This document shows positions 21,523 to 38,565 of a DNA stretch of 64,000 bases, piece after piece. The notes under the pieces are model-generated. The model worked only from the letters and a program-made list of their open reading frames with translations. It searched no databases and was not told the origin of the DNA. Each line of letters begins with the position of its first letter. The stretch's first letter is position 1. Source of the DNA: a virus; the IMG/VR virus record IMGVR_UViG_3300042484_003756, positions 1 to 64,000 of that record; one strand, written 5' to 3'. Made by a program: the position numbers and the translations under genes.

Positions 21523-22218
21523 ATGATAACTCATAAATCTATTAGAAATTTTACTAAGCCTAGAACATTTGTTGATTTGTACATTGAGGAATTAAAAGAA
21601 AGTAAGCCTAATCTTTCTGTAATTGATGTTGGCGGTGGAATCAACTCTTGGTGTAAGCATACTACTCACGTTGTAGATATTTTTGTCGATCCTGGTAGTA
21701 AGGAAGAGTTTGTTCAGACTCACCCGGATAGAATTTTCTTTGATTTTGATATTACTCAAAGAGACAATTGGAAAGAAGTATTAGACTACGTTGCTGAAAA
21801 TGGCAAATTTGATTATGCTATTTGTACTCACACTCTTGAAGATATTTCAAATCCATCTTTAGTTTGCGATATGCTTCAAAAAATTGCCAAAAGAGGCTTT
21901 GTTTCCGTCCCTTCAAAGTATGCTGAATATTTACGCTTTGAACAATGGTACGGAGTAAAAGGCTATCGAGGATTTTTTCATCACAAGTGGATTTATTCTC
22001 TCAAGGATAATGTTTTCAGAGGTTTTGAGAAAGCAAGTTATTGGGAACATTTAAACGATACACGTATTGATAAGCCACAAGGTCATTTTACAGAAATTGG
22101 ATTTATGTGGGAAGATAGTTTTGAATATAAGTTCTATCATTGTGGCGAAGTAATTGGATGCCATACTGAACCAAAATATCCATTAATTTTTGAAACAGAT
22201 GATTTGCCTATAAATTAA
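21523..22218 (+). CDS. SAM-dependent methyltransferase-like protein
   Basis: 231 aa. VIDVGGGINSW near residues 38-48 fits the glycine-rich motif I of class I methyltransferases, and FDYAICTHTLEDISNP followed by IAKRGFVSVPSKYAE fits the motif IV/post-motif segment. It is the first gene of the sugar island and is flanked by its own promoter box and terminator, so it is transcribed alone. A small-molecule or sugar methyltransferase is likely; the acceptor cannot be told. Confidence 0.7.
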   Translation: MITHKSIRNFTKPRTFVDLYIEELKESKPNLSVIDVGGGINSWCKHTTHVVDIFVDPGSKEEFVQTHPDRIFFDFDITQRDNWKEVLDYVAENGKFDYAICTHTLEDISNPSLVCDMLQKIAKRGFVSVPSKYAEYLRFEQWYGVKGYRGFFHHKWIYSLKDNVFRGFEKASYWEHLNDTRIDKPQGHFTEIGFMWEDSFEYKFYHCGEVIGCHTEPKYPLIFETDDLPIN

Positions 22219-22220
22219 TT

Positions 22221-22246
22221 AAAAGGAGCTGAAAAGCTCCTTTTTT
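22221..22246 (+). terminator. Intrinsic terminator with GAAA loop
   Basis: AAAAGGAGCT pairs with AGCTCCTTTT around a GAAA tetraloop, then TT. It ends the methyltransferase transcript just before the next promoter box. Confidence 0.93.
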
Positions 22247-22252
22247 ATTTGG

Positions 22253-22259
22253 GTATAAT
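22253..22259 (+). promoter_or_regulatory. GTATAAT promoter box, leaderless arrangement
   Basis: GTATAAT lies six bases before the ATG at 22266 (GTATAAT-TATAAT-ATG). The -35 position falls inside the terminator hairpin, with no match. No ribosome binding site lies between the box and the ATG. Confidence 0.65.
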
Positions 22260-22265
22260 TATAAT

Positions 22266-23576
22266 ATGACAAAAGAAGAACTGCTTAAATTAGTTGAAAA
22301 TTATGTTAAAAATGAACCTAATAAAAATTGGAGACCAGGAAAAGATCATGTACATTATGCTGGTCCTTATTTTGATCACAATGAAATAGTCAGATCTGTA
22401 TCAACTCTTTTAGATGGTTGGTTAGTATTGGGATCAGAAGCATATAAAGCTGAAAAAAAATTAGCATCATTATTTGGTAAAAATCATGCTTTATTGACTA
22501 ACTCTGGTAGCAGTTCAAATCTTCTAATGATGTCTGCTCTTAAGTCAAAAAGATATTTAAATTTGCCAGAAGGAACAAAAGTACTTACTCCTATAGCTGG
22601 TTTTCCCACTACAATAAATCCAATTTTTCAATGTGGATTTAAGCCTGTATTTGTTGATATTTCTTTAGATGGATTAAATTTAAATCTTGATGACGTTGAA
22701 GCTACATTGCAAGCTGATCCAGAAATTAAAATTATTACATTTGCCCACGTATTAGGTAATCCTCCTGATATGTATAGACTTATGGATATTATTGATCATT
22801 ATGGATTGATTTTATTGGAGGATTGTTGTGATGCTTTGGGGTCATTATTCGATGGCAATCCTTTGGGTAGCTTTGGCACTATGGCTTCTTGTTCTTTTTA
22901 TCCTGCTCATCATATTACTTGTGGAGAAGGCGGATTAGTTGTTTGTAATGATGACAACTTGGAAAAAGTAATTCGTTCTTTCAGAGATTGGGGACGTGGA
23001 TGTTTTTGTATTGGCAAACAAAATATCACTGAATGTGGAGCTTGTAATCAAAGATTTTCAGAATGGCTACCAAGTATGCCAGGAGAAGTTTTTGACCATA
23101 AATATGTTTACGAAGAAATTGGTTATAATCTTAAACCAATTGAAGTTCAAGCTAGTATGCTTCTTACTCAGATTGATAAGCTTTCTGAAATTAAAAGATT
23201 GCGACAAAGAAATCATAAATTATTATCAGAAATATTCCGAAAATATGAAGAACATTTTGTTCTTCCTATAGCTCAAAAAAATTCTGATGTTAACTGGTTT
23301 GCTTTTCCTGTTACAATTAAAGATAATGCGCCTTTTAAAAGAAGCGATATATGTCAATACTTAGAATCAAAGAAAATTCAAACTAGGCCATATTTCGCTG
23401 GTAATATATTGATGCAACCAGCCTACAGTCATTTAGTTGGAGACATGGATCTAAATGATTTTCCAGTTGCTAAAAAAGTAACAACTGATACATTCTTTTT
23501 AGGAACATCACCCGTTATAACTGAAGAGCAGATTGAGTATATAGGAGTTATCATAGATGGATTTTTCAAAAAATGA
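22266..23576 (+). CDS. rfbH-like: RfbH/E1-like CDP-6-deoxyhexulose 3-dehydratase (PLP and iron-sulfur)
   Basis: 436 aa, near the RfbH length of about 437. It has the DegT/DnrJ/EryC1/StrS fold (NSGSSSNLL, EDCCDALGS), but the PLP lysine position in SFYPAHHITCGEGG is His215, as in the E1 3-dehydratase. C188, C246, C248 and C257 (C-x57-C-x1-C-x8-C), with C260 nearby, resemble the E1 [2Fe-2S] motif C-x57-C-x1-C-x7-C. E1 removes the C3 hydroxyl from CDP-4-keto-6-deoxyglucose with a partner reductase (E3), which I do not see in the window. The gene overlaps the next by 20 bases. Dehydratase rather than aminotransferase is well supported; the nucleotide carrier is inferred. Confidence 0.9.
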   Translation: MTKEELLKLVENYVKNEPNKNWRPGKDHVHYAGPYFDHNEIVRSVSTLLDGWLVLGSEAYKAEKKLASLFGKNHALLTNSGSSSNLLMMSALKSKRYLNLPEGTKVLTPIAGFPTTINPIFQCGFKPVFVDISLDGLNLNLDDVEATLQADPEIKIITFAHVLGNPPDMYRLMDIIDHYGLILLEDCCDALGSLFDGNPLGSFGTMASCSFYPAHHITCGEGGLVVCNDDNLEKVIRSFRDWGRGCFCIGKQNITECGACNQRFSEWLPSMPGEVFDHKYVYEEIGYNLKPIEVQASMLLTQIDKLSEIKRLRQRNHKLLSEIFRKYEEHFVLPIAQKNSDVNWFAFPVTIKDNAPFKRSDICQYLESKKIQTRPYFAGNILMQPAYSHLVGDMDLNDFPVAKKVTTDTFFLGTSPVITEEQIEYIGVIIDGFFKK

Positions 23577-24282
23577 TTTAAGTAAAATTTACAACTTAGA
23601 TCCAGTAGATATTGGTGGTCAATCTCAAAAGAATCAAGATTTTTTTATTGATTATATTTTTAAATGTATAGAATTAAAAAATAAATTTTTTGTTGAATTT
23701 GGAGCAATTGATGGTGTGACTTTAAGTAATACATTTCTTTTGAGGACTGAAAAAGAATGGAATGGCTTATTATTAGATGGACTGTATGAAAACGCTTCTA
23801 TTAATTTACATAAAAGATTTATCACTAGAGAAAACATTATTTCTTTATTTGAAGAATTTAATGTACCTTATGATTTAGATTTTTTGTCAGTTGATGTTGA
23901 TGGTATGGATTTTCACATTTTAAAAGAAATTTTATCAAAGTATAAACCTGCTTTGATACAAGTAGAAACTAATTTGAGATTTAATCCAGATCAAAGCTAT
24001 GTTCTCAATTATGACCCTACTTGGTACTGGGATAATAGATCTTGGTATGGTGCAAGTCCATTAGCATATAAGAAAATGGCAGCAGAGTTTGACTATGTGC
24101 CACTAATAATGGTTTTTGATGATTTGTTTTTAATTAGAAAAGATTTAGTAAATGATGATATTATAAATAAACCTTGGATTGAAATTCAACCCAAGGCTAA
24201 TAAAGTAATATACAATACTCATGTTGGCAGAGTTGGTGTTCCTCAATACTACATGGATAAAAATAAATTTTCAGAATATTAA
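23557..24282 (+). CDS. FkbM-type methyltransferase
   Basis: 241 aa. FFVEFGAIDGVTLSNT fits the SAM-binding motif I of FkbM-family methyltransferases, and DLDFLSVDVDGMDFHIL fits the later family motif. These enzymes usually O-methylate sugars or polyketides. It overlaps the RfbH-like gene by 20 bases, so the two are coupled. Its stop codon shares TTAA with the convergent gene on the other strand. Confidence 0.8.
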   Translation: MDFSKNDLSKIYNLDPVDIGGQSQKNQDFFIDYIFKCIELKNKFFVEFGAIDGVTLSNTFLLRTEKEWNGLLLDGLYENASINLHKRFITRENIISLFEEFNVPYDLDFLSVDVDGMDFHILKEILSKYKPALIQVETNLRFNPDQSYVLNYDPTWYWDNRSWYGASPLAYKKMAAEFDYVPLIMVFDDLFLIRKDLVNDDIINKPWIEIQPKANKVIYNTHVGRVGVPQYYMDKNKFSEY

Positions 24283-24569
24283 AACGGTATTTTACCCCTT
24301 AGTATATCCAAAAGCATCATCCAGTCACTTATCTTGGCCTTGACAGGGTCCTTAAAAGCGGCTGGTTGATTTTTTTCAAAGAAATAATGACCACTCCAAG
24401 CAAATGGATATACAACTAATGGAGTCAAAATAAGAAACCAATAATATCCAAAATACAAACAACAGACTATCCAAAGAATTGTCATAAATTGACCTAAAAC
24501 GTGCAATCTTCGGCAAATTTTATTTGTATGAAGTGTAAGATACATTTGATAATATTCTTTCATATTCAT
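24279..24569 (-). CDS. DUF962/Mpo1-like membrane protein
   Basis: 96 aa from the ATG at 24569, which overlaps the preceding stop as ATGA with AGGGAG upstream. The longer reading from 24611 would overlap the kinase by 46 bases. It matches the DUF962/Mpo1 pattern: HTNKICRRLHVLGQ, two membrane segments (WIVCCLYFGYYWFLILTPLV), then YPFAWSGHYFFEKNQPAAF and a DP...D end. Yeast Mpo1 is an iron-dependent dioxygenase of 2-hydroxy fatty acids, with conserved histidines as ligands. A lipid-modifying role next to LPS-type sugar genes is plausible, but not shown. Confidence 0.8.
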   Translation of the reverse strand: MNMKEYYQMYLTLHTNKICRRLHVLGQFMTILWIVCCLYFGYYWFLILTPLVVYPFAWSGHYFFEKNQPAAFKDPVKAKISDWMMLLDILRGKIPF

Positions 24570-25336
24570 ATTGTGCATACTCCCTTTTTTTGTACTACAA
24601 TTGTTGCGCAATACTGAGCAAATTTGATAGCTTTTATAATTTCTTTTGAAGCTACATACTCACACACTAAGCCAGATATAAATGTATCACCAGCACCAGA
24701 AACATCTTTAATATTTACTTTTTCTACTGGATACAAAATATTTTTATATTCGCAGCCTTCATCTGATCTTGTAATGATCATTTGATCATAAATTCCAATT
24801 TCATCTATAGTATGTTTAGTTCTATCGTATTCAACATGGTTTATTTTTATGAACGAAACATATTTACACCATTCTCCTAGAATCTTTTTTGTGTCTAGAA
24901 AAATATTAAAATTATATTTTGAAATTTCATCTATATCTTCTTCAGTTAAGAATCCTTTGCAATAATCACTAATGATTATTGCATCGTAATGCATTCCTAG
25001 ATAACAATTGTTTTTGATGCCTTCTAAAATACTTCTTTCAATTCTTGAAGCTTTATCATTATTATCAACACGTAAAAGTAATGTGTTAGTACGCTCATCA
25101 ATAAAACGTTCTTTATGAATAGATTCTTTTTGAGTAATTAGATCAGCTGCAACTCCTATAGCCTCAATATTTTTTTGAACATTTAGTGCCATTCCACCAT
25201 TTGTAATTTTTCTAAGTGGATTGAAAACTGGAGCTGGACCTTCAGGAGCTAGTCTTAATGTTTGTCCATAAGTAAAAACATCAAAACAAGAATCTCCTAT
25301 GATAAGTACTTTTATATCTTTGTAACTTTTTTTCAT
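24566..25336 (-). CDS. PfkB-family sugar kinase, HldE N-domain-like
   Basis: 256 aa. VLIIGDSCFDVFTYGQT and RLAPEGPAPVFNP match the RfaE/HldE heptose-7-phosphate kinase N-terminus, and DVSGAGDTFISG is the PfkB anion-hole and catalytic-base motif. It is about 60 residues shorter than the usual HldE kinase domain, with the cytidylyltransferase domain absent. It would phosphorylate a sugar or sugar phosphate at C1 for nucleotide activation. GmhA, GmhB and HldD homologues are not obvious here. It is the fifth enzyme in a minus-strand run from 29272. Confidence 0.85.
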   Translation of the reverse strand: MKKSYKDIKVLIIGDSCFDVFTYGQTLRLAPEGPAPVFNPLRKITNGGMALNVQKNIEAIGVAADLITQKESIHKERFIDERTNTLLLRVDNNDKASRIERSILEGIKNNCYLGMHYDAIIISDYCKGFLTEEDIDEISKYNFNIFLDTKKILGEWCKYVSFIKINHVEYDRTKHTIDEIGIYDQMIITRSDEGCEYKNILYPVEKVNIKDVSGAGDTFISGLVCEYVASKEIIKAIKFAQYCATIVVQKKGVCTI

Positions 25337-25399
25337 AACAGTTATTTATTTCTTATAAAGCTATAGTTAGATTGGAATTGCATGTAGTAAATTATCAAC

Positions 25400-26569
25400 C
25401 TAATAGTTTAACACCTCGAGCAACTTAATAATTTTTTCTTTCACAAGCCCAGGATAATTTCCAATATACCAAGAGAAGTTATGAATATGTTCAATATTAG
25501 GATAGTTTGAAAAATCATTATAGACAGACTTGAAAAAAGGCTGTCTCATTTGATTTCCACCACCAGACAATCCTCTTCTAAACTCTATGCCATTATTTTT
25601 AAGTTGTCTTTCCAAATCATTTCTTTTTGTAAAGTCTGATTCTTTTAAAATTACAATAAAAGCATAATTACAATTTCCCTCAGTATTTAAGGCAATATGA
25701 TATTTTGTAGGATCTAAATTTGATATAAATAGATCAAAATTTTCTCTTCTTTCTTGATTTTTATTATCAAGCTTAGGAAGTTGAGAAAGTCCTATAACAG
25801 CGTTGATTTCTGTGCTTCTAAAATTATGAGCTGGTCTAAGAAAAATAAAGTCTGGATTAAGATCAGGATTATCCATAGCAATAGAAATTTTCATAGTATC
25901 GCTTGTCATCTCTCTAGTCATACCATGAGATCTTAGAGCACGACAAACTTGATAAAATTCCCAATCATTTGTAGATATCATGCCACCTTCAATAGTAGAC
26001 ATGTGGTGCGCAAAATAAAAACTAAAATTGCTAGCAAAACCAAAATTCCCAACTTTACGTCCTTGGAAAGTTGTTCCATGAGACTCACAAACATCTTCAA
26101 TTAGTAAAATGTTATTATCTTTACATATTTTCAAAAGATCATTAGTTAGACCATTTATACCTAAAACGTGAGTAAGGAATATTGCTTTTGTATTGGGATT
26201 GATAGCAGATTTTAATTTCTCAATATCAAATGAAAGATTTGTTAAGTTTACATCAACAAATACTAATTTATGTCCAGCAAAAAGGACTGAAGAAATATCT
26301 GAAATCCAAGTAAGGGGTGGAACAATAATTTCTCCTTCACCTACTAAATGAGCTAAAGCAAGCATTGTTAATTCATTTGCAGAAGCTCCAGAGTTGACAA
26401 ATAAATTATATTTTGTACCAAGCCATTCACCCCAAGCATTTTCAAATTCAACAACTTTTGGTCCATTTGTTAATTTTGGAATTTTATCTTGTGACAAAAA
26501 ATCTATAACAGAATTGATGTCTTCTCTGTCTATATTGTCATTCATTAATGGTAAGAAAAATTTATCCAT
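25400..26569 (-). CDS. ColD-like PLP-dependent sugar 3-dehydratase
   Basis: 389 aa, matching the size of ColD (388 aa). DegT/DnrJ fold motifs are present (FVNSGASANEL, EDVCESHGT), but the PLP lysine is replaced: SFYFAHHMSTIEGGM has H188, the same residue number as the catalytic His188 of E. coli ColD. ColD converts GDP-4-keto-6-deoxymannose to the 3-deoxy sugar without an iron-sulfur cluster. No cysteine cluster is seen here. It follows the TPP-enzyme pair, one base after its stop. The substrate could be a different nucleotide sugar. Confidence 0.88.
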   Translation of the reverse strand: MDKFFLPLMNDNIDREDINSVIDFLSQDKIPKLTNGPKVVEFENAWGEWLGTKYNLFVNSGASANELTMLALAHLVGEGEIIVPPLTWISDISSVLFAGHKLVFVDVNLTNLSFDIEKLKSAINPNTKAIFLTHVLGINGLTNDLLKICKDNNILLIEDVCESHGTTFQGRKVGNFGFASNFSFYFAHHMSTIEGGMISTNDWEFYQVCRALRSHGMTREMTSDTMKISIAMDNPDLNPDFIFLRPAHNFRSTEINAVIGLSQLPKLDNKNQERRENFDLFISNLDPTKYHIALNTEGNCNYAFIVILKESDFTKRNDLERQLKNNGIEFRRGLSGGGNQMRQPFFKSVYNDFSNYPNIEHIHNFSWYIGNYPGLVKEKIIKLLEVLNY

Positions 26570-26570
26570 T

Positions 26571-27107
26571 TTATTTCTCGTTGTAGTAATCGCCCCATTC
26601 TACTAGGACTGTAGGTCTATTGTCAGTGCGTAAATATGCATATTTGTATGCTTCAAAGATTTGATCAGCATCGTCCAATCTTATTATATCTATAAAATCA
26701 CACATTGCTCTAAATCCACCTGTAAAGTCTGCAATGTGTTGATGTTGAGGATGTAATGGTCTTTGAGAACCAATAGAAGTTCTGATAATAATTTTTGGCT
26801 TATATCCACCATGGGACATAAGTTTAATTTTATCTACATGGTTGACAAGTTGATTTGCAGCTAGTAAAAGAAAATTCCATCTAGGGTATAGAGAAATAGG
26901 TACTGTGCCATTAAGTGCCAAACCTAACGTCACACCCATTTGCATATCTTCATTAACTGGCATTTCTAGCAACTTTGATTTTTCAATATTGGTCAAAGTA
27001 TTTGTCATAGCTGTACCCGGATATTCGACAGCTTGGCCAATAAAAATTGTATCCTGCTGTTCTCCAAGCCATTCCATAGATTTTTTTAATTCATCAAAAT
27101 ATTTCAT
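26571..27107 (-). CDS. TPP enzyme Pyr-domain subunit (E1 beta/transketolase C-half like), short
   Basis: 178 aa. VNEDMQMGVTLGLALNG carries the glutamate that activates the aminopyrimidine of TPP, and YPRWNFLLLAANQLVNHVDK and RTSIGSQRPLHPQHQHIAD match the E1 beta/transketolase Pyr domain. The C-terminal transketolase domain (about 130 residues) is missing. It starts at the TAATG overlap with the partner subunit at 27107. The two together would form a minimal alpha/beta enzyme transferring a 2-carbon or acyl unit. Confidence 0.85.
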   Translation of the reverse strand: MKYFDELKKSMEWLGEQQDTIFIGQAVEYPGTAMTNTLTNIEKSKLLEMPVNEDMQMGVTLGLALNGTVPISLYPRWNFLLLAANQLVNHVDKIKLMSHGGYKPKIIIRTSIGSQRPLHPQHQHIADFTGGFRAMCDFIDIIRLDDADQIFEAYKYAYLRTDNRPTVLVEWGDYYNEK

Positions 27108-27712
27108 TAAAATTGAATCCTCTTTCCAGCTCCAGCGTGAGGATAAATTGACTCATACTGATAATAAATAACTTTCTCTCTTGGTTGTTGAAAAAATAAA
27201 ACTTCAGAATTCCAAACTTTTCTTGTTTCTGTGCAAACAGATTTGTTATTGTCTTCAACAATAAAAGTTATAGGCAAGTTATGATTGACTGCATATTTCC
27301 AGTTTTCAAAAAATGCACCAGTTTCAGAAGCCATATCTCCCACAAAACACCAAACATGACCTGATTCATTTTTGATTTTTTTATCTACAGCAACTCCTAC
27401 TGATATAGGAATACTACCAGTAACAATTGCTGAAGAATAGATATTAAACTCAGGATAACATAAAGTAATTGAATTACCATCTAAAATATCTTGACGTAAC
27501 CTATCTTTAGGAACCCCTTTTAATAAACACTGATAATGTGATCTCCAAGTACAAAATATCCAATCTTCATCTTTAATTTTTTCGAAAATCTCAATAATTT
27601 TTGCTTCATTGCCTGAATACAAATGAATAGGAGCTTTTATGATTCCATTATTGAAACATTCTCCAATTTCTGTTTCAAAATCTATCAAATCTTGCTTGCT
27701 GTATTTAGTCAT
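27107..27712 (-). CDS. TPP enzyme PP-domain subunit (E1 alpha-like), short
   Basis: 201 aa. The TPP/Mg motif GDMASETGAFFENW...VEDNN corresponds to the GD-x(24-28)-N motif of E1 alpha and transketolase N-halves. VTGSIPISVGVAVDKK is the preceding conserved segment. Normal E1 alpha subunits are about 330 aa, so this is a shortened form. The pair is followed by the ColD-like dehydratase and the kinase, suggesting that the 2-carbon chemistry acts on or before the deoxysugar. A TATAAT-type box about 30 bases upstream (minus strand near 27746) and AGAGGC as RBS may start the unit. Confidence 0.85.
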   Translation of the reverse strand: MTKYSKQDLIDFETEIGECFNNGIIKAPIHLYSGNEAKIIEIFEKIKDEDWIFCTWRSHYQCLLKGVPKDRLRQDILDGNSITLCYPEFNIYSSAIVTGSIPISVGVAVDKKIKNESGHVWCFVGDMASETGAFFENWKYAVNHNLPITFIVEDNNKSVCTETRKVWNSEVLFFQQPREKVIYYQYESIYPHAGAGKRIQF

Positions 27713-27751: not shown

Positions 27752-29272
27752 TTATCTTTCCAACTTTACTAATAGCATTTTTTCAATTGATTCAACAGCT
27801 CTTGGTCCATAAATGCTTTGGATTTTATCTTTAAAGCTCTGGTTCGAGTGATATTCATGAAAAGCATCATCTCTGAATTTTAAAATTTGATCTCTCGATA
27901 AATTTTCATGAATAACAGGTAAAGTTTTCTTTCCTAAAAAAGAATATTCTTCATATTCCTTAGGTAGTATTGAATTATTATCATAAGCCTCTTTATAAAT
28001 TTTACTACCAGGTAAAGCGATTGCAGGATATCCATTCCATCCACAAGTATTAAGTTTTTTTGAAAAATCTAAAGTTTCTTGCATTGTCTCCAAACTATCA
28101 CCAGGAAGACCAAAAATATAATTTGCCATAACTTGAATACCAGAGTCTTCAACTTGCTTTACGACTTTTTCAATATCTACATCTTCAAATTTGCCTTTAG
28201 TTACCTCTAATCTTACAGTTTTGTTGGCACTCTCGATTCCAAGAGCTAGCCATTTGATTCCAGCTGATTTGACTAAACTCAAAATCTCAGGATTTCTTAC
28301 AGTATCAATTCTGGAATATGCCCACATTCTAAACTCAGCGCCCATTCCAGATTCTGTAATCAAACTGCAAAGAGGTTCGTAATATTTTTTATTAAGTAAA
28401 AACATTTCATCTGTAATTTTGATTGTTCTTACTCCTAAGTCATAAAGTTTTTGAAACTCTTTAAAAATAAATTCTGGAGACCAAAATCTCATTTTTGAAT
28501 AATTGCTAGCAACACCAATTTCTTCATTATCATTTCTGTTTATAATATTAATCATACAAAATGAGCAGCCAAATTGACAGCCTAATGAAGTTTGAATTGC
28601 AGCATAAGGCGACCTGTTCTCATCAATGTACTCAGCATGCCAATATGGTGATCGATATAAATCTAAAGGCTTTTCTTTAAATGGAAGTAAGTCCCAAGCG
28701 TATCCTGGTAGATCTGTATCCATTTTTTCGTTTGGTACTATTTGTTCTGGATCATTAAAAATAATTTCTCCATCTTTTCGCCAAGCTATACCTTTAATAT
28801 CTTCTAAGTTTTCAAGATTGATATCTGTCTTCAAAATGTTTCTTAATGCATAAACACCTTCATTCATAAAAATAAAATCAATAGATTTCTCTTCAGTCAA
28901 AGTCTTTTTAGGCAGTGCTTGAACATAGGAGCCAACATATGAAATAGGTGTTTTTAATCCAGAATTTTTGATATATTCAGAAAATTTGACAGAATCAGTC
29001 ATTGATACTGTGCCAGAATTGACATTTTGACCATAAACAACAAAACATATCAACCTTGGATTTTTTTGTTCAATTCTTTTTAATCCTTCTTCAAAAGATA
29101 AATTTTCTGCATTCATATCGAGAATTGCAACTTTATAATCTACTGAACGGCAAGATTGAGCTAAAAGCAATGACCAAGTTGGAGGCTCAATAGCAGCTAA
29201 ATTATTAGCCAAACTTTGATAAACTATGTTAGATCCACCTGGATTTACAAACAAAACGTCTAAATTATTCAT
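27752..29272 (-). CDS. B12-binding-type radical SAM enzyme
   Basis: 506 aa. Residues about 1-180 look like a cobalamin-binding Rossmann domain (VLFVNPGG, PTWSLLLAQSC, YVGSYVQALPKKT), although I do not see a clear DxHxxG motif. The radical SAM domain has SLGCQFGCSFCMI, a CxxxCxxC cluster motif, near residues 226-238. Such enzymes often methylate unactivated carbons or rearrange carbon skeletons. A role in branching or methylating the island's sugar is an inference from context. The 164-base AT-rich gap upstream (29273-29436) probably holds the promoter (TATAAA near 29288 on the minus strand). Confidence 0.85.
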   Translation of the reverse strand: MNNLDVLFVNPGGSNIVYQSLANNLAAIEPPTWSLLLAQSCRSVDYKVAILDMNAENLSFEEGLKRIEQKNPRLICFVVYGQNVNSGTVSMTDSVKFSEYIKNSGLKTPISYVGSYVQALPKKTLTEEKSIDFIFMNEGVYALRNILKTDINLENLEDIKGIAWRKDGEIIFNDPEQIVPNEKMDTDLPGYAWDLLPFKEKPLDLYRSPYWHAEYIDENRSPYAAIQTSLGCQFGCSFCMINIINRNDNEEIGVASNYSKMRFWSPEFIFKEFQKLYDLGVRTIKITDEMFLLNKKYYEPLCSLITESGMGAEFRMWAYSRIDTVRNPEILSLVKSAGIKWLALGIESANKTVRLEVTKGKFEDVDIEKVVKQVEDSGIQVMANYIFGLPGDSLETMQETLDFSKKLNTCGWNGYPAIALPGSKIYKEAYDNNSILPKEYEEYSFLGKKTLPVIHENLSRDQILKFRDDAFHEYHSNQSFKDKIQSIYGPRAVESIEKMLLVKLER

Positions 29273-30789: not shown

Positions 30790-30819
30790 TTCGTTTTGAG
30801 CTTCGTAAATCAATGTAAT

Positions 30820-30826
30820 GTATAAT
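30820..30826 (+). promoter_or_regulatory. GTATAAT promoter box for the plus-strand sugar unit
   Basis: GTATAAT is nine bases before the ATG at 30836. It overlaps an upstream in-frame ATG at 30818, which is therefore unlikely to be used. A weak TTGAGC lies 19 bp upstream. Confidence 0.6.
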
Positions 30827-30835
30827 TACCTAAGT

Positions 30836-31801: not shown

Positions 31802-31810
31802 GGAATAAAA

Positions 31811-32764
31811 ATGAAAATTGCATATGTGACAGGTTGCTTAGGTTTTATTGGAAGGCATGTTACTCAATGCCTTTTAGAAAAAGATTTTTATGTGTATGGT
31901 ATTGACAATTGCACTTACGCATCAGACCTGAGTTGCATTGAAATTTTTTCTTCTTATAAAAATTTTAAGTTTGAGAATAAAAATATTTGTGATATCAACA
32001 GATTAGTAGATTGTGATTATTTTATAAATATTGCTGCTGAAACTCATGTTGATAATTCTATTAGAGATAGTAAAATTTTTATTGATTCAAACATTTATGG
32101 AGTCCATAACATACTAGAGCTTCTTAAAGTTTATAAAAAAGAAGGCTATGTTGTTCCAAGATTAATTCATTTTAGCACTGACGAGGTATACGGAGATATA
32201 TCTGAAGGTGAACATTTTGAAACAGACATTCTAAAACCTAGCAATCCATATTCCGCTTCAAAAGCTTCTGCAGATCAACTTATAATTGCTTGGTCTAGAA
32301 CTTATGATATTCCATATAATATCATCAGACCTACAAATAATTATGGTATAGGTCAATACGTTGAAAAGTTGATTCCTAAAGCTTGTAAATTTATTGGATT
32401 AGGAAGAAAAATACCTCTTCATAATCAAGGTACTCCGATTCGTAATTGGTTACACGCAAAAGATACAGCCAGAGCTGTACTTTCTATTATTGATTCAGGT
32501 TTAGCTAATGAAATTTACAATGTAGCTGGTGGATTTGAACAATCAAACATAGAGACAGTTAAAAAAGTAATCAATACATATTATGGAAAAGAAATGCCAA
32601 ATTATGAAAATTTTGTAAATTTTGGAATTGAAAGACCTGGACAAGATGTCAGATATGCACTTAATGATGACAAGATTCGCAGCTTAGGATGGAGACCATT
32701 GTGCGTTTTTGATGATGAGATTGCTCATATAGTTGAATATTACAAAAACAACTTCATTTGGTAG
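31811..32764 (+). CDS. rmlB-like: dTDP-glucose 4,6-dehydratase-like (RmlB family)
   Basis: 317 aa with AAGGA upstream. VTGCLGFIGRHV (GxxGxxG) binds NAD. The 4,6-dehydratase signature STDEVYG places T123, D124 and E125 in the active site, with Y147 and K151 (YSASK). RPTNNYGIGQYVEKLIPK is a typical RmlB segment. It would make a 4-keto-6-deoxy nucleotide sugar, the kind of substrate needed by the two His-type 3-dehydratases. Whether the carrier is dTDP, CDP or GDP cannot be read from motifs. Confidence 0.9.
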   Translation: MKIAYVTGCLGFIGRHVTQCLLEKDFYVYGIDNCTYASDLSCIEIFSSYKNFKFENKNICDINRLVDCDYFINIAAETHVDNSIRDSKIFIDSNIYGVHNILELLKVYKKEGYVVPRLIHFSTDEVYGDISEGEHFETDILKPSNPYSASKASADQLIIAWSRTYDIPYNIIRPTNNYGIGQYVEKLIPKACKFIGLGRKIPLHNQGTPIRNWLHAKDTARAVLSIIDSGLANEIYNVAGGFEQSNIETVKKVINTYYGKEMPNYENFVNFGIERPGQDVRYALNDDKIRSLGWRPLCVFDDEIAHIVEYYKNNFIW

Positions 32765-32767: not shown

Positions 32768-32773
32768 ATATAT

Positions 32774-33574
32774 ATGAATAATAGAGAATTTGAATGTGTA
32801 AGAATTCTTACAGACTTGGTTGAAAATTATGGACTTGTTGGAATTAAAACAAGTTTTGAAGATGAAGGTGCAAGTTTCAATGAAGTTCTCAGACTTAAAG
32901 AAATTTGTAATCAATCAAAAACCAAAGTTACATTAAAGATTGGTGGTCCAGAAGCCATAAGAGACATCAAAGATTCTATGATAATTGGTGTAAAAGGCTT
33001 AGTGGCTCCAATGGTTGAGTCTGAATTTGGACTTACTAAATTTATTAATGCTGTAAATAACAATTTACCTGTTGAAGTTGTCAGTTCGTTGCAGCTTAAT
33101 GTAAATATTGAAACTATTACTGCTGTTTCAAATATTGATAAAATTTTATCCAACAAGCAAGCTGAGGCATTGTATGGAGTTACTCTTGGGAGAGTTGATT
33201 TAGTTTCATCAATGGGCCTTAATAGAAATTCTGTAAATTCTGAAGACATTTACAATATTGCACACAATGTTTTTGAAAAGACAAAAAAATTAGGCGCAAA
33301 AGCTTGTGTTGGCGGTGCTGTATCTATTGATTCTTTAGATTTCTTGAAAAAACTGCACTCTGAAAAATTACTAGACAAATTTGAAACCAGATACGCAATC
33401 TTTGATCCATCTATTACATTGAAAAACTTATCAAGAGCCCTATTTAAAGCTCAAATGCTTGAATATGAATGGCTTACTAATAAGATGGAATATTATCAAA
33501 ATCAAGCTAATCAAGATGAAACTAGACTGAAAATGATTCAGTCACGCATCAATCAGTCGGCATCTGAACTTTGA
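32774..33574 (+). CDS. HpcH/HpaI aldolase/citrate lyase family protein
   Basis: 266 aa. KIGGPEA, GLVAPMVESEFGL and GRVDLVSSMGLN match the metal-binding and substrate loops of HpcH/HpaI class II aldolases (Glu in PMVES, Asp in RVD). These catalyse pyruvate or 2-keto acid aldol reactions. The stop overlaps the TTG start of the next gene (TTGA). In context it may make or cleave a carbon-carbon bond in a keto sugar. Confidence 0.8.
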   Translation: MNNREFECVRILTDLVENYGLVGIKTSFEDEGASFNEVLRLKEICNQSKTKVTLKIGGPEAIRDIKDSMIIGVKGLVAPMVESEFGLTKFINAVNNNLPVEVVSSLQLNVNIETITAVSNIDKILSNKQAEALYGVTLGRVDLVSSMGLNRNSVNSEDIYNIAHNVFEKTKKLGAKACVGGAVSIDSLDFLKKLHSEKLLDKFETRYAIFDPSITLKNLSRALFKAQMLEYEWLTNKMEYYQNQANQDETRLKMIQSRINQSASEL

Positions 33575-34209
33575 GAGTACTTGTCACTGGTGGATCAAGA
33601 GGAATTGGTAAAGATATTTGTGACAAGTTTAAAAATGAAGGTCATGAAGTTATATCCCCATCTCGTGAAGAACTTGATTTATCTAAACCTTTTTTATTTA
33701 CTCCTGAAAAGATTGACATACTAGTAAATAATGCTGGAATCAATATAGTAGATTCTATCTTTGAAGGTGAGAATTACGAAGAATTAATGACAGTAAATTA
33801 TTTCTCGCCTTTAAGATTATTCAAGCTTTGTTTGCCTTATATGAAGAAGCAAAACTATGGAAGAATTATCAACATAGGAAGTGTTTGGATTGATTATGCA
33901 AAACCTGGAAGATCCTCATATAGTGCTAGTAAAAATGCCTTACACTCTCTTACAAAAGCTATAACTGCTGAGTATGGTACTTATAATATTTTGGCAAATA
34001 CTGTGTCTCCAGGGTTTTTTATTACAGATATGACTTTTAAAAATAATACAGAAGAAGATTTGAAAGATTTAAGAAGTAAAATTCCACTTGGTAGATTAGG
34101 ATATACAAATGAAGTTGCAGATTTAGTATATTTTTTGAGTATACAAAATTCATATATATCTGGGCAAAATATAGTTATAGATGGTGGTTACTCATGTACA
34201 GCCAAATAA
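33571..34209 (+). CDS. Short-chain dehydrogenase/reductase (FabG-like)
   Basis: 212 aa from a TTG start that overlaps the upstream TGA. VTGGSRGIGKDI binds NAD(P), LVNNAGIN is the SDR NNAG motif, IGSVW gives the catalytic serine and YSASKNALHSL gives Tyr and Lys. It would reduce or oxidise a keto intermediate. It overlaps the cyclase gene by 16 bases. Confidence 0.9.
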   Translation: MRVLVTGGSRGIGKDICDKFKNEGHEVISPSREELDLSKPFLFTPEKIDILVNNAGINIVDSIFEGENYEELMTVNYFSPLRLFKLCLPYMKKQNYGRIINIGSVWIDYAKPGRSSYSASKNALHSLTKAITAEYGTYNILANTVSPGFFITDMTFKNNTEEDLKDLRSKIPLGRLGYTNEVADLVYFLSIQNSYISGQNIVIDGGYSCTAK

Positions 34210-35240
34210 ATGTTAAATCAAAAATTAAAGATTATTCTGTAAATTTTGTAAGCTTAAGTGAGATACATAAACTAATTGGTGAAGATTATCATCTTGCAGT
34301 AGTTGACAAGAATGTTGCTAATTATTTTCCTAAATTTTATTTAGGTGATGTTATAGTTTTAGACACAGATGAAGACTTAAAATCATGGCGTGGTTTAGAA
34401 AAAATATTTGACGAATTTGCTGCAAAAAAAGTCAATACACAAACTAAACTCATAGTCATTGGTGGCGGAGTATTACAAGATGCAGTTGGTTTTTGCGCTT
34501 CTGTTTATTGTAGAGGTATTGAGTATTATCTAGTTCCAACAACATTACTTTCTCAGATAGATAGCTGTGTTGGTGGAAAAACTTCTATCAATTATGGTTC
34601 GAGAAAAAATATTCTAGGCACATTTTATCCTCCAAAAGAAATTCTTATTTGCGAAGATTGGCTTTACGGTTTAAATAAAGAAAACTTTTGTAGTGGATTG
34701 GGAGAACTCTTTAAGTTTGATATTTTAAGGAATAAAATTCAAGAATCAAAAGTTAATGAACTAATTTCTGGAAATGAAAATGTTTTGCATCACATTTATG
34801 AAAGTCTAAAATATAAAATTTCTATTTTAGAAATTGATGAGTTTGATAAAAAAGAAAGAAAATATCTAAATTTTGGACATACATTTGGACATGCATTAGA
34901 AATAACTTCAAATTATAAGTTATCGCATGGATATGCAGTTGTAATTGGTTGCTTGATAGCATTGAAAATTAGTGTAGATTTGTTTGATTACAATAAAGAA
35001 GACTTTACTTTAGCATTAAATTTGGCAAAAAATATATTAAAAAATACCATTAATATAGAAGAAAATTGGTTTGATTATGATTCACTAATGGAATGTGTAA
35101 AATCAGACAAGAAAAATACTGGCTGTTTAAATATGGTGCTTCTAAAAGACAATAATCCAGTAATTCAAAAAATTGATGATTATTCTATAATTAAAGAGGC
35201 ACTGGTAAATGTTTATGAAGCTCTCAGATTATGTAATTAA
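34194..35240 (+). CDS. 3-dehydroquinate synthase-like sugar phosphate cyclase
   Basis: 348 aa. VIGGGVLQDAVGF, VPTTLLSQIDSCVGGKT and GHTFGHALEI carry the NAD, phosphate and metal-binding features of the AroB fold. The product in this setting is unlikely to be dehydroquinate for aromatic synthesis, since no other shikimate genes are present. Related cyclases make carbocycles such as 2-deoxy-scyllo-inosose or valiolones. It overlaps both neighbours, so it belongs to the HpcH-SDR-cyclase-TPP unit. Confidence 0.88.
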   Translation: MYSQINVKSKIKDYSVNFVSLSEIHKLIGEDYHLAVVDKNVANYFPKFYLGDVIVLDTDEDLKSWRGLEKIFDEFAAKKVNTQTKLIVIGGGVLQDAVGFCASVYCRGIEYYLVPTTLLSQIDSCVGGKTSINYGSRKNILGTFYPPKEILICEDWLYGLNKENFCSGLGELFKFDILRNKIQESKVNELISGNENVLHHIYESLKYKISILEIDEFDKKERKYLNFGHTFGHALEITSNYKLSHGYAVVIGCLIALKISVDLFDYNKEDFTLALNLAKNILKNTINIEENWFDYDSLMECVKSDKKNTGCLNMVLLKDNNPVIQKIDDYSIIKEALVNVYEALRLCN

Positions 35241-36939
35241 ATTTCTTCACGATAACTATGACGTTGATACAATTTTCACTTTATCAGGTGGAGGATGTAT
35301 ACATTTAATAGATTCTCTTGGTAAATCAGAAGATGTAAATTACATAGCAACTCACCACGAACAAGCTGCAGCAATTGCAGCTGAGGGATATGCACGTAAG
35401 AAAAATAAACTTGGTGCCTGTCTTGTAACTTCTGGACCTGGCGGAACTAATGCTCTTACTGGAACTCTTTGCAGTTTTTTGGATTCAATACCAGTAATTG
35501 TAATAAGCGGACAAGTCAACAAACCATTAACAACAAATTTTACAAATCTTAATCTAAGACAACTTGGAGATCAAGAATTTGACATTGTAAAGACAGCTAA
35601 AACAATGACAAAATATGCTGTTCAAGTTAACAATCCTGACGAGATTAGATATCATTTAGAGAAAGCTTGTTATTTAGCAACAAATAAAAGACCTGGACCT
35701 GTTTGGGTAGATATTCCATTAGACGTACAATCTGCTCAAATTGATGTATCTAGCCTTAAGCCTTTTACACCAAGCCCATCTGATTACCAGACCAATGAAT
35801 ATGATTATGTTTCAATTATTGAAAGATGGAATAATTCAAAAAAACCATTATTAATTGTTGGTAACGGAGTAAGACTCTCTGGTGCCGTAGATTCTTTATT
35901 TGATTTATTAGATAAGACCAGCATACCTGTAATCACGGCTGTCAATGGAAATGATATTGTCAATGAATCTTATCCTTACTATTATGGTAGGTTTGGTACT
36001 CATGCTCAAATATGCGCAAATAAATTAATAAATGAAGCTGATTTTATCCTTTCTATTGGGTCAAGATTATATATAAGACAAATAGGATATAACTTTGATG
36101 ATTTTGGAAAAAATGCATATAAAGTAGCCGTAGACATTGATCAAAATGAACTAGATAAGCCTACTTTAAGACTTGATGAAAAGATTTGTGAAGATGCTAA
36201 AAAATTTATAAACAATTTGAATGAAGTTTTCATAAAAAAATGTTCTGAAGATTGGTTGCAGCATTGTGAAACATTTAAAACTTTAAAAGTCTTAGACAAG
36301 CATAGAGATAAAAAAGACTTTGTGAGCAACTATTATCTGATTGAAAAATTATCTCAAATTTTACCGCAAGATTATGACATTGTTACAAGTGACGGTTCTG
36401 CAAATGTAATTACTATGCAAGTGATCGAACTTAAAGACAATCAAAGACTTATAACTAATACTGGCTGTGCTCCAATGGGATATGGTTTACCCTGTGCTGT
36501 AGGAGTTGCTTCTACTGGTCAAAAAACATTGTGTATTGAAGGCGATGGTAGTTTACATTTAAATATCCATGAATTACAAACAATGATGCATAATAATCTT
36601 CCAATCAAATTATTATTGTTGAATAATGATGGATATTTGTCAATTAAAGTTACACAAAAAACTTTTTTCAATGGTCATTATGTTGCTTCAGAAAAATCTA
36701 GTGGAGTGTCTTTTCCTGATTTTAAAAAAATAGCAGATGCTTATAGTATTCCATATTTTGAAATTAAAACAAATAATGAAGTTGATAAAGTTTTAGATAA
36801 TTTTTTAAACTTTGAAGGGCCTTGTTTTTGCCAAGTATTTACCGATCCCAATGAAATTTTTGAACCTAGAGTAGTTGCAAAAATGGATGAAAATGGCAAG
36901 TTTATTCCAGGTCGATTATCCGAAGCTCAATGGAGTTAA
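35209..36939 (+). CDS. Acetolactate-synthase-like TPP enzyme (YerE/IolD-like)
   Basis: 576 aa; the start may be 35209 or the ATG at 35215. The TPP catalytic glutamate is E51 in THHEQAAAIAAEGYAR; SGPGGTNALTG and IEGDGSLHLNIHELQTM (GDG motif) match the AHAS family. Relatives include YerE, which adds a two-carbon acetyl branch to a CDP-4-keto-3,6-dideoxysugar, and IolD, which acts on an inositol dione. Both fit this island. It overlaps the cyclase gene by 26-32 bases and is followed by an SDR. Confidence 0.88.
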   Translation: MFMKLSDYVIKFLHDNYDVDTIFTLSGGGCIHLIDSLGKSEDVNYIATHHEQAAAIAAEGYARKKNKLGACLVTSGPGGTNALTGTLCSFLDSIPVIVISGQVNKPLTTNFTNLNLRQLGDQEFDIVKTAKTMTKYAVQVNNPDEIRYHLEKACYLATNKRPGPVWVDIPLDVQSAQIDVSSLKPFTPSPSDYQTNEYDYVSIIERWNNSKKPLLIVGNGVRLSGAVDSLFDLLDKTSIPVITAVNGNDIVNESYPYYYGRFGTHAQICANKLINEADFILSIGSRLYIRQIGYNFDDFGKNAYKVAVDIDQNELDKPTLRLDEKICEDAKKFINNLNEVFIKKCSEDWLQHCETFKTLKVLDKHRDKKDFVSNYYLIEKLSQILPQDYDIVTSDGSANVITMQVIELKDNQRLITNTGCAPMGYGLPCAVGVASTGQKTLCIEGDGSLHLNIHELQTMMHNNLPIKLLLLNNDGYLSIKVTQKTFFNGHYVASEKSSGVSFPDFKKIADAYSIPYFEIKTNNEVDKVLDNFLNFEGPCFCQVFTDPNEIFEPRVVAKMDENGKFIPGRLSEAQWS

Positions 36940-36940
36940 T

Positions 36941-37768
36941 ATGAAGAAAATTTTGATTACTGGTAGTAATGGATATGTTGCTAGAAATATAGCAAAAAAT
37001 TTATGTAATTATGATTTGACATTTACAGAAAGATCAAATTTAAACTTACTAGATCCTAAAACTGTAAAAAATTTTTTCAAATATAATTATTTTGATGTAG
37101 TAATACACACTGCAACTTCAGGTGGAAGCAGACTTGAAAAAGATAATTCAGATGTGTTTTTTGAAAATTGCATTATGCATCAAAATATTTTAGATAATGC
37201 CTCTTCATTTGATAAATATATATCTTTTGGGTCAGGAGCTGAATTAGACAGAAGATATGACATAGATCCTTCTGTAGATATTAAAAGTTCATTTCCGATT
37301 GATCCTTATGGTATGAGTAAAAATTTTATAGCAAAATCAGGTCTTTTATATCCAAATTTTCACAACATAAGGATATTTAATGTATTTAATGAAGATGAAT
37401 TGTCTACAAGAATGATAAAAGCAAATATAATTAATTACATAAATAAAAAACCAATAGTAATTCATCAAGACAAATGGATGGACTTTTTTTACATGAATGA
37501 TTTATGTGAAGTTTTAAAATTTGTTATTGATTCAAACTCACCACAAAAAATTATTAATTGTTCATATCAAGAAAAATACAAACTTAGTACAATAGCTGAA
37601 ATAATCAATCAATTATCTAATTACAAAGTTGATATTGTAATAGAAAGCAATTCTTTTGGTCTAAATTATTACGGTGATTACAATTTGCATTTATTTGATA
37701 TGGATTTATCTGGATTGCATTTAGGTATAACAAATACATACAATAAATTAAGGAATGAATTAAATTGA
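36941..37768 (+). CDS. NAD-dependent sugar reductase/epimerase (extended SDR)
   Basis: 275 aa from the ATG at 36941, with GGAG five bases upstream. The longer reading from 36875 overlaps the TPP gene and lacks a site. ITGSNGYVARNI binds NAD; YGMSK is the Tyr-Lys pair; MDFFYMNDLC is typical of sugar SDRs. It resembles RmlD and GDP-fucose synthase-type reductases. It may reduce the keto group left after the carboligation step. Its stop overlaps the next start (TTGA). Confidence 0.8.
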   Translation: MKKILITGSNGYVARNIAKNLCNYDLTFTERSNLNLLDPKTVKNFFKYNYFDVVIHTATSGGSRLEKDNSDVFFENCIMHQNILDNASSFDKYISFGSGAELDRRYDIDPSVDIKSSFPIDPYGMSKNFIAKSGLLYPNFHNIRIFNVFNEDELSTRMIKANIINYINKKPIVIHQDKWMDFFYMNDLCEVLKFVIDSNSPQKIINCSYQEKYKLSTIAEIINQLSNYKVDIVIESNSFGLNYYGDYNLHLFDMDLSGLHLGITNTYNKLRNELN

Positions 37769-38565
37769 AAAACCTATTAGTGAATTTTTCTGTTGGAGAT
37801 AAATGTATTGACTCATTAGAGGGGGATGTATTTCTAAATTCTCTATCAAAATTTAATACATTCGAAAAGGCTGTATTTGTAAGTAACGTAAGCCCAGCAA
37901 ATATTAAGAAGCTTGAGAAATATTTCGATATTGTAATTCCTAATAATGAAAATTTGTATACAAGTTATCTGGCATTATATAACTGGCTATCGGAACACGT
38001 TGATGAATATAAGTATGTAATGCATTCTGATTTAAGAGATGTTGTAATTCAAAAAGATCCTTTTAGTTTTTTTGAGTCAAATCCTGAAATCAATATGTTT
38101 TACTCTTTAGAAGGTATGAAAATAATTGAAAATGATTGTAACTTATGGTGGGAGCAAAATCTTAGAACAATTTTAAGATCACACAATGGTTCTTACGAAA
38201 ATGAGTATGTAATCAATGGCGGAATTTTTGGTGGAAAAATTGAGCATATGATAAACCATTGTTTGATGATGTTTTCAAACACTAATAGAAAATCTCAATT
38301 TTTAGTAATGGATCAACAGTTTTTAGGATACTTAAGTCAATATCTTAAGATGAATCCTAAAAATATGCTTTGTCACCCTTATAAAGATACTTTTGCTTGT
38401 ACTGGGGAAGCAATAAAGAGAGACAATGTTGAAGTTTATTTTGATGGAACTTATGTAACCAATAAGGACGGAGAACCTTATTGTATTTTTCATCAGTGGG
38501 ATAGAACTGAATTAGCAAAGCATTTTCAAAGTAAAGAATTAAACACCTTGCGATTCTCTCTCTAA
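37765..38565 (+). CDS. GT-A-like glycosyltransferase
   Basis: 266 aa from a TTG start overlapping the previous TGA. HSDLRDVV at about residues 89-96 fits a DxD-type metal motif, YVINGGIFGG and VMDQQFL fit the acceptor and catalytic segments of GT-A enzymes. It is the last plus-strand gene of the island and probably transfers the finished sugar. It overlaps the convergent tail gene by 27 bases. Confidence 0.65.
   Translation: MKNLLVNFSVGDKCIDSLEGDVFLNSLSKFNTFEKAVFVSNVSPANIKKLEKYFDIVIPNNENLYTSYLALYNWLSEHVDEYKYVMHSDLRDVVIQKDPFSFFESNPEINMFYSLEGMKIIENDCNLWWEQNLRTILRSHNGSYENEYVINGGIFGGKIEHMINHCLMMFSNTNRKSQFLVMDQQFLGYLSQYLKMNPKNMLCHPYKDTFACTGEAIKRDNVEVYFDGTYVTNKDGEPYCIFHQWDRTELAKHFQSKELNTLRFSL

What the first reader, a model, noticed from the sequence alone, without database searches (positions are those of the whole stretch)
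21523..38565. 17-kb sugar-modification island between capsid and tail genes
Seen: about 16 enzyme genes in three strand blocks lie exactly between the capsid terminator and the convergent tail operon. They include two 3-dehydratases, a 4,6-dehydratase, two kinds of TPP enzyme, a cyclase, an aldolase, B12 radical SAM, a kinase, methyltransferases and glycosyltransferases. Inferred: they make and transfer an unusual deoxy, branched or cyclised sugar to the virion or to the host surface. I know of no described phage cluster with this set.
Basis: partly seen in the sequence, partly recalled or inferred. Interest (0 to 1): 0.85.

Follow-up and report, generated by a model that had tools for sequence, protein, structure and literature searches.

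The report
Swappable branched-sugar gene island in megaphages
Between its shell and tail genes, this giant bacterial virus, a relative of Bacillus phage G, carries a 17-kb set of sugar-making genes whose contents are swapped from one related virus to the next, probably so that each virus makes its own unusual branched sugar to coat its particle.

Summary
Nineteen intact genes in +/−/+ blocks lie between a strong terminator behind the major capsid gene and a convergent structural operon. The virus is a 72.8-kb fragment of a phage-G-like megaphage (capsid 48% identical to Bacillus phage G; relatives up to 479 kb). New here: the site is a hypervariable island. In seven relatives the flanking genes are nearly all kept, while 1 to 14 of the 19 island genes are; 22 islands hold 102 gene families. 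The 'acetolactate synthase' is a YerE-like thiamine carboligase (closest solved structure JanthE). In 14 of 15 copies it lies within three genes of a swappable enzyme that makes 4-hydroxy-2-oxo acids (HpcH, NeuB, DmpG, HMGL-like or PanB). With two 3-dehydratases that make deoxy-keto sugars, this points to combinatorial branched-chain sugars. The islands hold no polytopic membrane protein. Four O-antigen assembly families were absent from the 15 contigs searched, and the framework protein next to the tail folds like a protein or capsid glycosyltransferase. Virion decoration is therefore favoured over host-surface conversion, but unproven. Phage sugar clusters are known in cyanophages; the branched-sugar chemistry, swapping and capsid-tail site make this a new variant of a known kind.

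The parts
20602..21456 (+). major capsid protein, left flank (not part of the island)
   Evidence: phrog_2522 E 2.4e-68; 48% id to Bacillus phage G gp27
21472..21507 (+). intrinsic terminator between capsid gene and island
   Evidence: fold -20.2 kcal/mol, z -4.54, 0 of 200 shuffles as good
21523..22218 (+). methyltransferase (Methyltransf_23)
   Evidence: 33 bits, cut-off 27; in 7 of 22 islands
22266..23576 (+). RfbH-type NDP-4-keto-6-deoxyhexose 3-dehydratase
   Evidence: NF011936 440 bits over cut-off 423; 3bcx 322 bits; in 18 of 22 islands
23557..24282 (+). FkbM-like methyltransferase (weak)
   Evidence: 21.3 bits, cut-off 22.7; only in this island
24279..24569 (-). Mpo1-like small membrane protein (2-hydroxy fatty acid dioxygenase family); the listed ORF starts at 24611, the family match starts near the Met at 24569
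   Evidence: PF06127 102 bits, cut-off 24; in 15 of 22 islands
24566..25336 (-). PfkB-family sugar kinase, HldE-kinase-domain-like
   Evidence: PF00294 59 bits; TIGR02198 118 bits, below cut-off
25400..26569 (-). ColD-like NDP-4-keto-6-deoxyhexose 3-dehydratase
   Evidence: best PDB match 2gms ColD, 180 bits; FAHHMST motif
26571..27107 (-). TPP enzyme, beta-type half (transketolase pyrimidine domain)
   Evidence: PF02779 37 bits, cut-off 27
27107..27712 (-). TPP enzyme, alpha-type half (E1 dehydrogenase)
   Evidence: PF00676 55 bits, cut-off 22
27752..29272 (-). B12-binding radical SAM enzyme
   Evidence: PF04055 and PF02310 over cut-offs; CxxxCxxC motif at residue 232
29437..30378 (-). NAD-dependent sugar epimerase/dehydratase (framework gene Epi1)
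   Evidence: PF01370 118 bits; 88-92% identical in relatives
30375..30776 (-). 133-aa framework protein of unknown function
   Evidence: no family over cut-off; 81-83% identical in 6 relatives
30818..31801 (+).
   Evidence: no family; structure prediction failed, pLDDT 34
31811..32764 (+). RmlB-like NDP-glucose 4,6-dehydratase
   Evidence: TIGR01181 294 bits, cut-off 365; YSASK motif
32774..33574 (+). HpcH/HpaI-type aldolase, proposed 4-hydroxy-2-oxo-acid maker
   Evidence: PF03328 39 bits, cut-off 25
33571..34209 (+). short-chain dehydrogenase/reductase
   Evidence: PF00106 132 bits
34194..35240 (+). AroB-related sugar-phosphate cyclase (TIGR04425-like)
   Evidence: 304 bits, cut-off 400; AroB 245 bits; GGKTS and GHTFGHAL motifs
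35209..36939 (+). YerE-like ThDP carboligase
   Evidence: JanthE 8rph 398 bits; HHEQ and GDG motifs
36875..37768 (+). NAD-dependent epimerase/reductase (framework gene Epi2)
   Evidence: PF01370 70 bits
37765..38565 (+). GT-A-fold glycosyltransferase next to the tail operon (framework gene)
   Evidence: AF2 pLDDT 84.8; Foldseek glycogenin 8.7e-9, PBCV-1 capsid GT 1.9e-8; phrog_1579 glycosyltransferase 5.6e-5
38539..55699 (-). convergent structural (connector/tail-type) operon, right flank (not part of the island)
   Evidence: phrog_195 head-tail adaptor and Mu gp36 at 51044-51538; 13-15 of 15 genes kept in relatives

Best explanation
The island is a serotype-like locus that makes strain-specific deoxy and branched-chain sugars for the phage particle. 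Proposed path: (1) RmlB-like, RfbH and ColD-like enzymes turn host nucleotide-sugars into 4-keto-6-deoxy and 4-keto-3,6-dideoxy sugars. (2) A donor module makes a 4-hydroxy-2-oxo acid; here it is the HpcH aldolase with an SDR and an AroB-like cyclase. (3) The YerE-like ThDP enzyme decarboxylates a 2-oxo acid and joins the fragment to the keto sugar, giving a branched sugar; the split E1-type enzyme probably adds a C2 branch to a second keto sugar. (4) Epimerase/reductases, methyltransferases and the B12 radical SAM enzyme trim the product. (5) Soluble GT-A-type transferases, above all the conserved 266-aa protein next to the tail genes, attach it in the cytoplasm, most likely to virion proteins. 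Related phages swap donor modules and tailoring genes between conserved framework genes and so change the surface sugar. Shown: gene families, intact motifs, purifying selection, variability against conserved flanks, clustering of carboligase and donor genes, lack of the four assembly families tested. Inferred: substrates, products, order of steps, attachment to the virion, selective reason.
For: Family identity: RfbH over cut-off; ColD best PDB match; YerE-like best PDB match JanthE 8rph. Known chemistry: YerE adds an acyl unit to CDP-3,6-dideoxy-4-keto-glucose, ErwE prefers 4-hydroxy-2-oxo acids, split alphaKADH2 enzymes add C2 branches (PMC12247030). Coupling: 12 of 13 YerE-like copies lie within 3 genes of HpcH, NeuB, DmpG, HMGL-like or PanB, with 0 of 20,000 gene-order shuffles reaching this. 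Two copies found afterwards fit too (DmpF-DmpG in G004, NeuB in G025). Variability: flanks 15-17/17 and 13-15/15 kept against island 1-14/19 (G005's upstream is cut off by its contig); 102 families in 22 islands. Island exchange: in G008 several island genes are 85-88% identical while the tail median is 65%. Virion rather than envelope: no polytopic membrane protein in 321 island genes; no PF01943, PF02397 or PF00953 match and no PF04932 match over cut-off in 15 contigs, controls positive; GT fold near glycogenin and the PBCV-1 capsid GT; place between capsid and tail genes. Purifying selection. Precedent: mycobacteriophages glycosylate capsid and tail tube (PMC12363180).
Against: No proteomics, glycan data or cultured host. 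No CDP- or GDP-sugar supply genes and no E3-type reductase were identified in this island, so substrates must come from the host. Only a few soluble GTs are evident, one of them unrecognised. The Mpo1-like membrane protein does not fit a purely cytosolic pathway. The donor-family list was drawn up after looking at the maps, several islands share cassettes by descent, and one of 15 YerE-like copies (second copy in G007) has no donor gene nearby. An AroB-type cyclisation usually consumes the 2-oxo group, so how the cyclase feeds the carboligase is unclear. G020 (96% capsid identity) has a nearly empty site, so the sugar is dispensable in some phages. Other flippase families and ABC exporters were not searched.
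Confidence: 0.5

Rival explanations
1. Host-surface conversion. The phage makes the same unusual NDP-sugars but they enter the host's own LPS or capsule machinery during infection, changing the surface so that competing phages no longer adsorb.
For: This is the standing proposal for the polymorphic cyanophage sugar clusters (PMC7824862). YerE-like enzymes are known from bacterial LPS (PMC12247030). RfbH and ColD-type enzymes serve O-antigens. The phage need not carry a flippase if it uses the host's.
Against: No flippase, polymerase or initiating transferase in the contigs searched; no polytopic membrane protein in the islands; fixed place between capsid and tail genes in every contig that reaches both.
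Confidence: 0.28
2. Sugar decoration of phage DNA bases against restriction, as in T4-like glucosylation or RB69 arabinosylation (from general knowledge).
For: Phages do sugar-modify DNA; the locus makes NDP-sugars and has a GT-A-fold transferase.
Against: No thymidylate-synthase-family (hydroxymethylase) gene in 15 contigs, controls positive; the locus lies among virion genes; one phage would hardly need so many sugar-tailoring genes, nor swap them so often, for a base modification.
Confidence: 0.05
3. A small-molecule or signalling product (an antibiotic-like glycoside or cyclitol) made during infection, rather than a glycan.
For: Cyclase, B12 radical SAM and split TPP enzymes also occur in antibiotic-sugar pathways; one cyanophage cluster has been predicted to make a secondary metabolite (PMC7824862).
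Against: No polyketide or peptide core enzyme or exporter among the island families identified; a glycosyltransferase is a conserved framework gene next to the tail operon.
Confidence: 0.07
4. The YerE-like assignment is wrong in detail: the ALS-like and aldolase enzymes build an acyl or cyclitol side group that is attached as an ester or amide, not a carbon branch on the sugar.
For: The cyclase would use up a 2-oxo-3-deoxy acid, so the product may be a carbocycle rather than a carboligase donor; HpcH gave no PDB match.
Against: The closest solved structure is a ketone-accepting YerE-like enzyme, and the neighbour rule holds over five donor families.
Confidence: 0.1

Closest known systems
Cyanophage nucleotide-sugar / LPS-like clusters (Synechococcus phages RN05-S, S-CAM7; P-SSM2 cluster reviewed in PMC7824862)
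   Same: 10-20 gene phage clusters with RfbH/DegT dehydratase, epimerases, RmlC, FkbM and GTs; polymorphic between relatives
   Different: Not next to the capsid gene in the two regions read; annotation there shows no YerE-like enzyme, AroB-like cyclase, donor module or B12 radical SAM; different phage lineage
YerE / ErwE / JanthE branched-chain sugar pathways of bacteria (yersiniose, erwiniose)
   Same: Keto-deoxy sugar acceptor plus ThDP carboligase; ErwE uses 4-hydroxy-2-oxo acids, which the donor modules here would supply (PMC12247030)
   Different: Bacterial LPS loci; here phage-borne, with five kinds of donor enzyme and a second, split TPP enzyme
Bacterial cassettes with HpcH aldolase, TIGR04425-like cyclase and TPP enzyme (Granulicella, Rhodanobacteraceae, actinobacterial and other genomes, L018, L019, L023, L025-L028)
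   Same: Similar enzymes close together, 31-40% identical
   Different: Not all members present in each; product unknown; chromosomal
Megavirinae fibril glycosylation clusters (PMC10117803)
   Same: Large viruses make rare bacterial-like sugars for the particle surface in a clade-specific way, with clusters of 6 to 33 genes
   Different: Eukaryotic viruses; amino sugars; virion glycans shown chemically
Mycobacteriophage virion glycosylation (Che8, Corndog, Myrna; cited in PMC12363180)
   Same: Phage glycosyltransferases decorate capsid and tail tube
   Different: Rests on phage-encoded glycosyltransferases; no large sugar-synthesis island is described in the passages read
Bacillus phage G (Donellivirus)
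   Same: Closest isolated relative by capsid (48%)
   Different: No sugar genes annotated in the 20 kb behind its capsid gene

Membership tests
YerE-like ThDP carboligase (35209-36939) | Closest to YerE-like enzymes rather than acetolactate synthase | tested here: met
   JanthE 8rph 398 bits; the only other hit at the limit is an acetolactate synthase II entry, 252 bits
YerE-like ThDP carboligase (35209-36939) | ThDP motif and catalytic Glu | tested here: met
   HHEQ at residue 49 and GDG at residue 445
YerE-like ThDP carboligase (35209-36939) | Transfers an acyl unit to an NDP-keto sugar | not testable with these tools
   needs enzymology
RfbH 3-dehydratase (22266-23576) | NCBIfam equivalog cut-off | tested here: met
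   440.2 bits, cut-off 423
RfbH 3-dehydratase (22266-23576) | Active-site His in place of the aminotransferase Lys | tested here: met
   PAHHIT motif aligned to 3bcx
TIGR04425 cyclase (34194-35240) | Curated cut-off 400 bits | tested here: not met
   304 bits, though its best-scoring family; so 'related to', not a member
dTDP-glucose 4,6-dehydratase RmlB (31811-32764) | Curated cut-off 365 bits | tested here: not met
   294 bits, best-scoring family; nucleotide specificity open
HldE-type heptose kinase (24566-25336) | Curated cut-off 345 bits | tested here: not met
   118 bits; filed only as a PfkB-family kinase
alphaKADH2 sugar-branching enzyme (26571-27712) | Split alpha/beta E1-type ThDP enzyme | tested here: met
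   E1_dh and Transket_pyr on adjacent genes
alphaKADH2 sugar-branching enzyme (26571-27712) | Sequence closeness to aldgamycin or kibdelomycin enzymes | not tested
   no such sequences at hand
O-antigen / capsule locus (lipid-linked assembly) | Flippase, polymerase or initiating transferase | tested here: not met
   none in islands; PF01943, PF02397, PF00953 and PF04932 without a match over cut-off in 15 contigs
Virion glycosylation system | Glycan on capsid or tail protein | not testable with these tools
   needs purified virions
Phage-G-like megaphage | Homologous major capsid protein in a genome of hundreds of kb | tested here: met
   48% identity to phage G gp27; relatives of 300-479 kb

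The most novel reading that the evidence does not exclude
Phages have their own serotype system: a polymorphic locus between capsid and tail genes builds the virion coat sugar by combinatorial chemistry, a constant YerE-like carboligase being paired with interchangeable 4-hydroxy-2-oxo-acid makers (HpcH with cyclase, NeuB, DmpFG, HMGL-like, PanB), giving branched or carbocycle-bearing sugars not described before.
Probability: 0.4. Interest if true: 0.88.

Novelty: new variant of a known kind. Interest (0 to 1): 0.74.

Why it matters
If right, phage particles carry variable sugar coats comparable to bacterial serotypes. That would mean phages are under diversifying selection on their own surface, from other phages, host factors or grazers. 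The locus is also a natural combinatorial library for branched-sugar enzymology: one acceptor pathway and one carboligase family with five kinds of donor enzyme, each giving a testable product. Finally, it gives the phage-G-like megaphages a specific hypothesis for part of their genome variation.

Tried and rejected
Random or decaying insertion: rejected by intact motifs and dN/dS. True acetolactate synthase for branched amino acids: rejected by the JanthE match and context. DHQ synthase for the shikimate pathway: unlikely, TIGR04425 scores above AroB. Cyanophage membership: no psbA-family gene found and the capsid is phage-G-like. Methanotroph phage via pmoC: no hit, but the control was silent, so nothing follows. 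A pan-phage sugar site: distant relatives (MCP 72-90%) have other genes there. Structure of the 327-aa protein from a single sequence failed (pLDDT 34). PDB profile search with the 266-aa alignment gave nothing before folding. HpcH gave no PDB match. Literature on TIGR04425: none found. The host was not identified. Capsid identity alone is a poor measure of phage relatedness, because the capsid is far more conserved than its neighbours; I used all flanking genes instead.


Full report
WHAT WAS CHECKED. The window lies in a 72,759-base virus record. The interval 21523-38565 holds 19 genes in a +, a - and a + block. A strong intrinsic terminator (21472-21507, z -4.5) separates it from the major capsid gene. 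The last island gene overlaps by 27 nt the first gene of a convergent operon, which carries a head-tail adaptor match.

WHAT PHAGE IT IS. The capsid is 48% identical to Bacillus phage G gp27. A scan of viral contigs found 142 relatives, some on contigs of 300-479 kb. Phage G itself has no annotated sugar genes within 20 kb behind the capsid gene. The record is therefore a fragment of a phage-G-like megaphage. The host is unknown.

WHAT THE GENES ARE. Sixteen of 19 have Pfam matches. RfbH scores over its equivalog cut-off (440 against 423) and aligns along its whole length to the E1 dehydrase 3bcx. The second PLP enzyme is closest to ColD. The ALS-like enzyme is closest to 8rph, which PMC12188165 identifies as JanthE, a YerE-like enzyme that couples 2-oxo acids to ketones; the score is 398 bits against 252 for an acetolactate synthase entry. 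The cyclase is nearest to TIGR04425 but below its cut-off. The 266-aa protein next to the tail operon has no Pfam match but folds confidently (pLDDT 84.8, pTM 0.84) as a GT-A enzyme, with glycogenin and the PBCV-1 capsid glycosyltransferase among the best PDB matches. That is a fold resemblance, not a proof of protein specificity.

THE ISLAND IS HYPERVARIABLE. I fetched the same site from relatives and compared gene content. Flanking genes against the window: G006 17/17 upstream and 15/15 downstream; G007 16/17 and 15/15; G015 15/17 and 15/15; G008 17/17 and 15/15; G013 15/17 and 13/15; G018 15/17 and 14/15. Island genes kept: 13, 12, 8, 14, 5 and 1 of 19. The 22 islands examined hold 321 genes in 102 families, about half of them in one island only. 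About ten framework genes recur in fixed order and strand: RfbH; Mpo1-like, PfkB, ColD, TPP beta/alpha, Epi1 and the 133-aa gene; RmlB, YerE-like, Epi2 and the 266-aa GT. The rest is swapped. In G008 several island genes are 85-88% identical to the window's while the tail median is 65%, so cassettes have moved between lineages. Genes are under purifying selection. About half of the 22 islands are cut by contig ends, and the ORF caller was simple.

A COMBINATORIAL RULE. YerE-like enzymes take a 2-oxo acid; ErwE prefers 4-hydroxy-2-oxo acids (PMC12247030). In these islands 12 of 13 YerE-like copies lie within three genes of an enzyme of a family that makes such acids: HpcH/HpaI aldolase, NeuB, DmpG, an HMGL-like enzyme or ketopantoate hydroxymethyltransferase. 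None of 20,000 gene-order shuffles reached this (family calls and from reading the sequences). The rule was formed on these islands, so two YerE-like copies found later are the fairer test: G004 has DmpF-DmpG and G025 has NeuB beside the enzyme. Islands sharing a cassette by descent are not independent, but at least six different donor arrangements are. The gene was not found in G018, G020, G022, G026, G028 or G029, large contigs that lack this type of island. My reading: the island makes keto-deoxy sugars with RmlB, RfbH and ColD, and joins to them a carbon fragment chosen by the donor module. The split TPP pair is a likely second branching enzyme, because alphaKADH2 enzymes add C2 branches in antibiotic sugars.

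WHERE THE SUGAR GOES. No island protein is polytopic by hydropathy. Flippase PF01943 and initiating transferases PF02397 and PF00953 gave no match, and polymerase/ligase PF04932 none over cut-off, in 15 contigs, including seven of 300-479 kb; control genomes rang. Thymidylate-synthase-family genes, expected for hydroxymethyl-base glycosylation, are also missing. Soluble transfer to virion proteins is therefore the simplest reading, and mycobacteriophages set the precedent. Host-surface conversion, the standing proposal for cyanophages (PMC7824862), remains the main rival, because a phage can use the host's own assembly machinery.

KNOWN OR NEW. Phage sugar clusters are known: Synechococcus phages RN05-S and S-CAM7 have them. 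Sequence searches of 50,697 phage records found distant matches to single enzymes and no comparable YerE/cyclase/aldolase set. Part of the cassette has bacterial relatives (31-40%), and RmlB-HpcH-SDR-cyclase-YerE-Epi2 also occurs in three other viral contigs whose neighbouring genes differ where read (L007, L008, L014). I rate this a new variant of a known kind.

Noticed in passing
L049:12641-13813: The island of G018 encodes a RuBisCO-like protein (PF00016, E 6e-33) beside a HAD-nucleotidyltransferase fusion and, further on, a GHMP kinase; a RuBisCO-like protein in a phage sugar locus is unexpected.
   Followed up: partly
L031:10904-12112 and L046:11241-12383: LAGLIDADG-type homing-endonuclease-like genes (Pfam match for the first, judged by sequence for the second) sit directly behind the capsid gene in some relatives, at the left border of the island, and may help move it.
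   Followed up: no
L052 / L125 (record G020): A relative with 96% capsid identity has a nearly empty site (4.6 kb from capsid to the 816-aa tail-block gene), a natural sugar-minus comparator.
   Followed up: partly
window 24279-24569: A small Mpo1-like (2-hydroxy fatty acid dioxygenase family) membrane protein is one of the commonest framework genes (15 of 22 islands); its role in sugar making is unexplained.
   Followed up: no
window 30375-30776: A 133-aa protein of unknown function is a framework gene (81-83% identical in six relatives, with a nearly invariant C-terminal half).
   Followed up: partly
window 20602-21456: The capsid protein is 98-100% identical across phages whose neighbouring structural genes differ by 10-50%, an unusually conserved capsid.
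   Followed up: no
L044 and L049 (records G013, G018): Some islands carry a GHMP kinase and a HAD-nucleotidyltransferase fusion, a set resembling GDP-heptose synthesis, so heptose-based sugars may be an alternative product line.
   Followed up: no
L054:17708-20282 and L126:11649-14212: More distant relatives (G022, G024) carry, at the same site, a pair that by sequence looks like a polysaccharide pyruvyl transferase and a glycosyltransferase instead of the sugar island.
   Followed up: no
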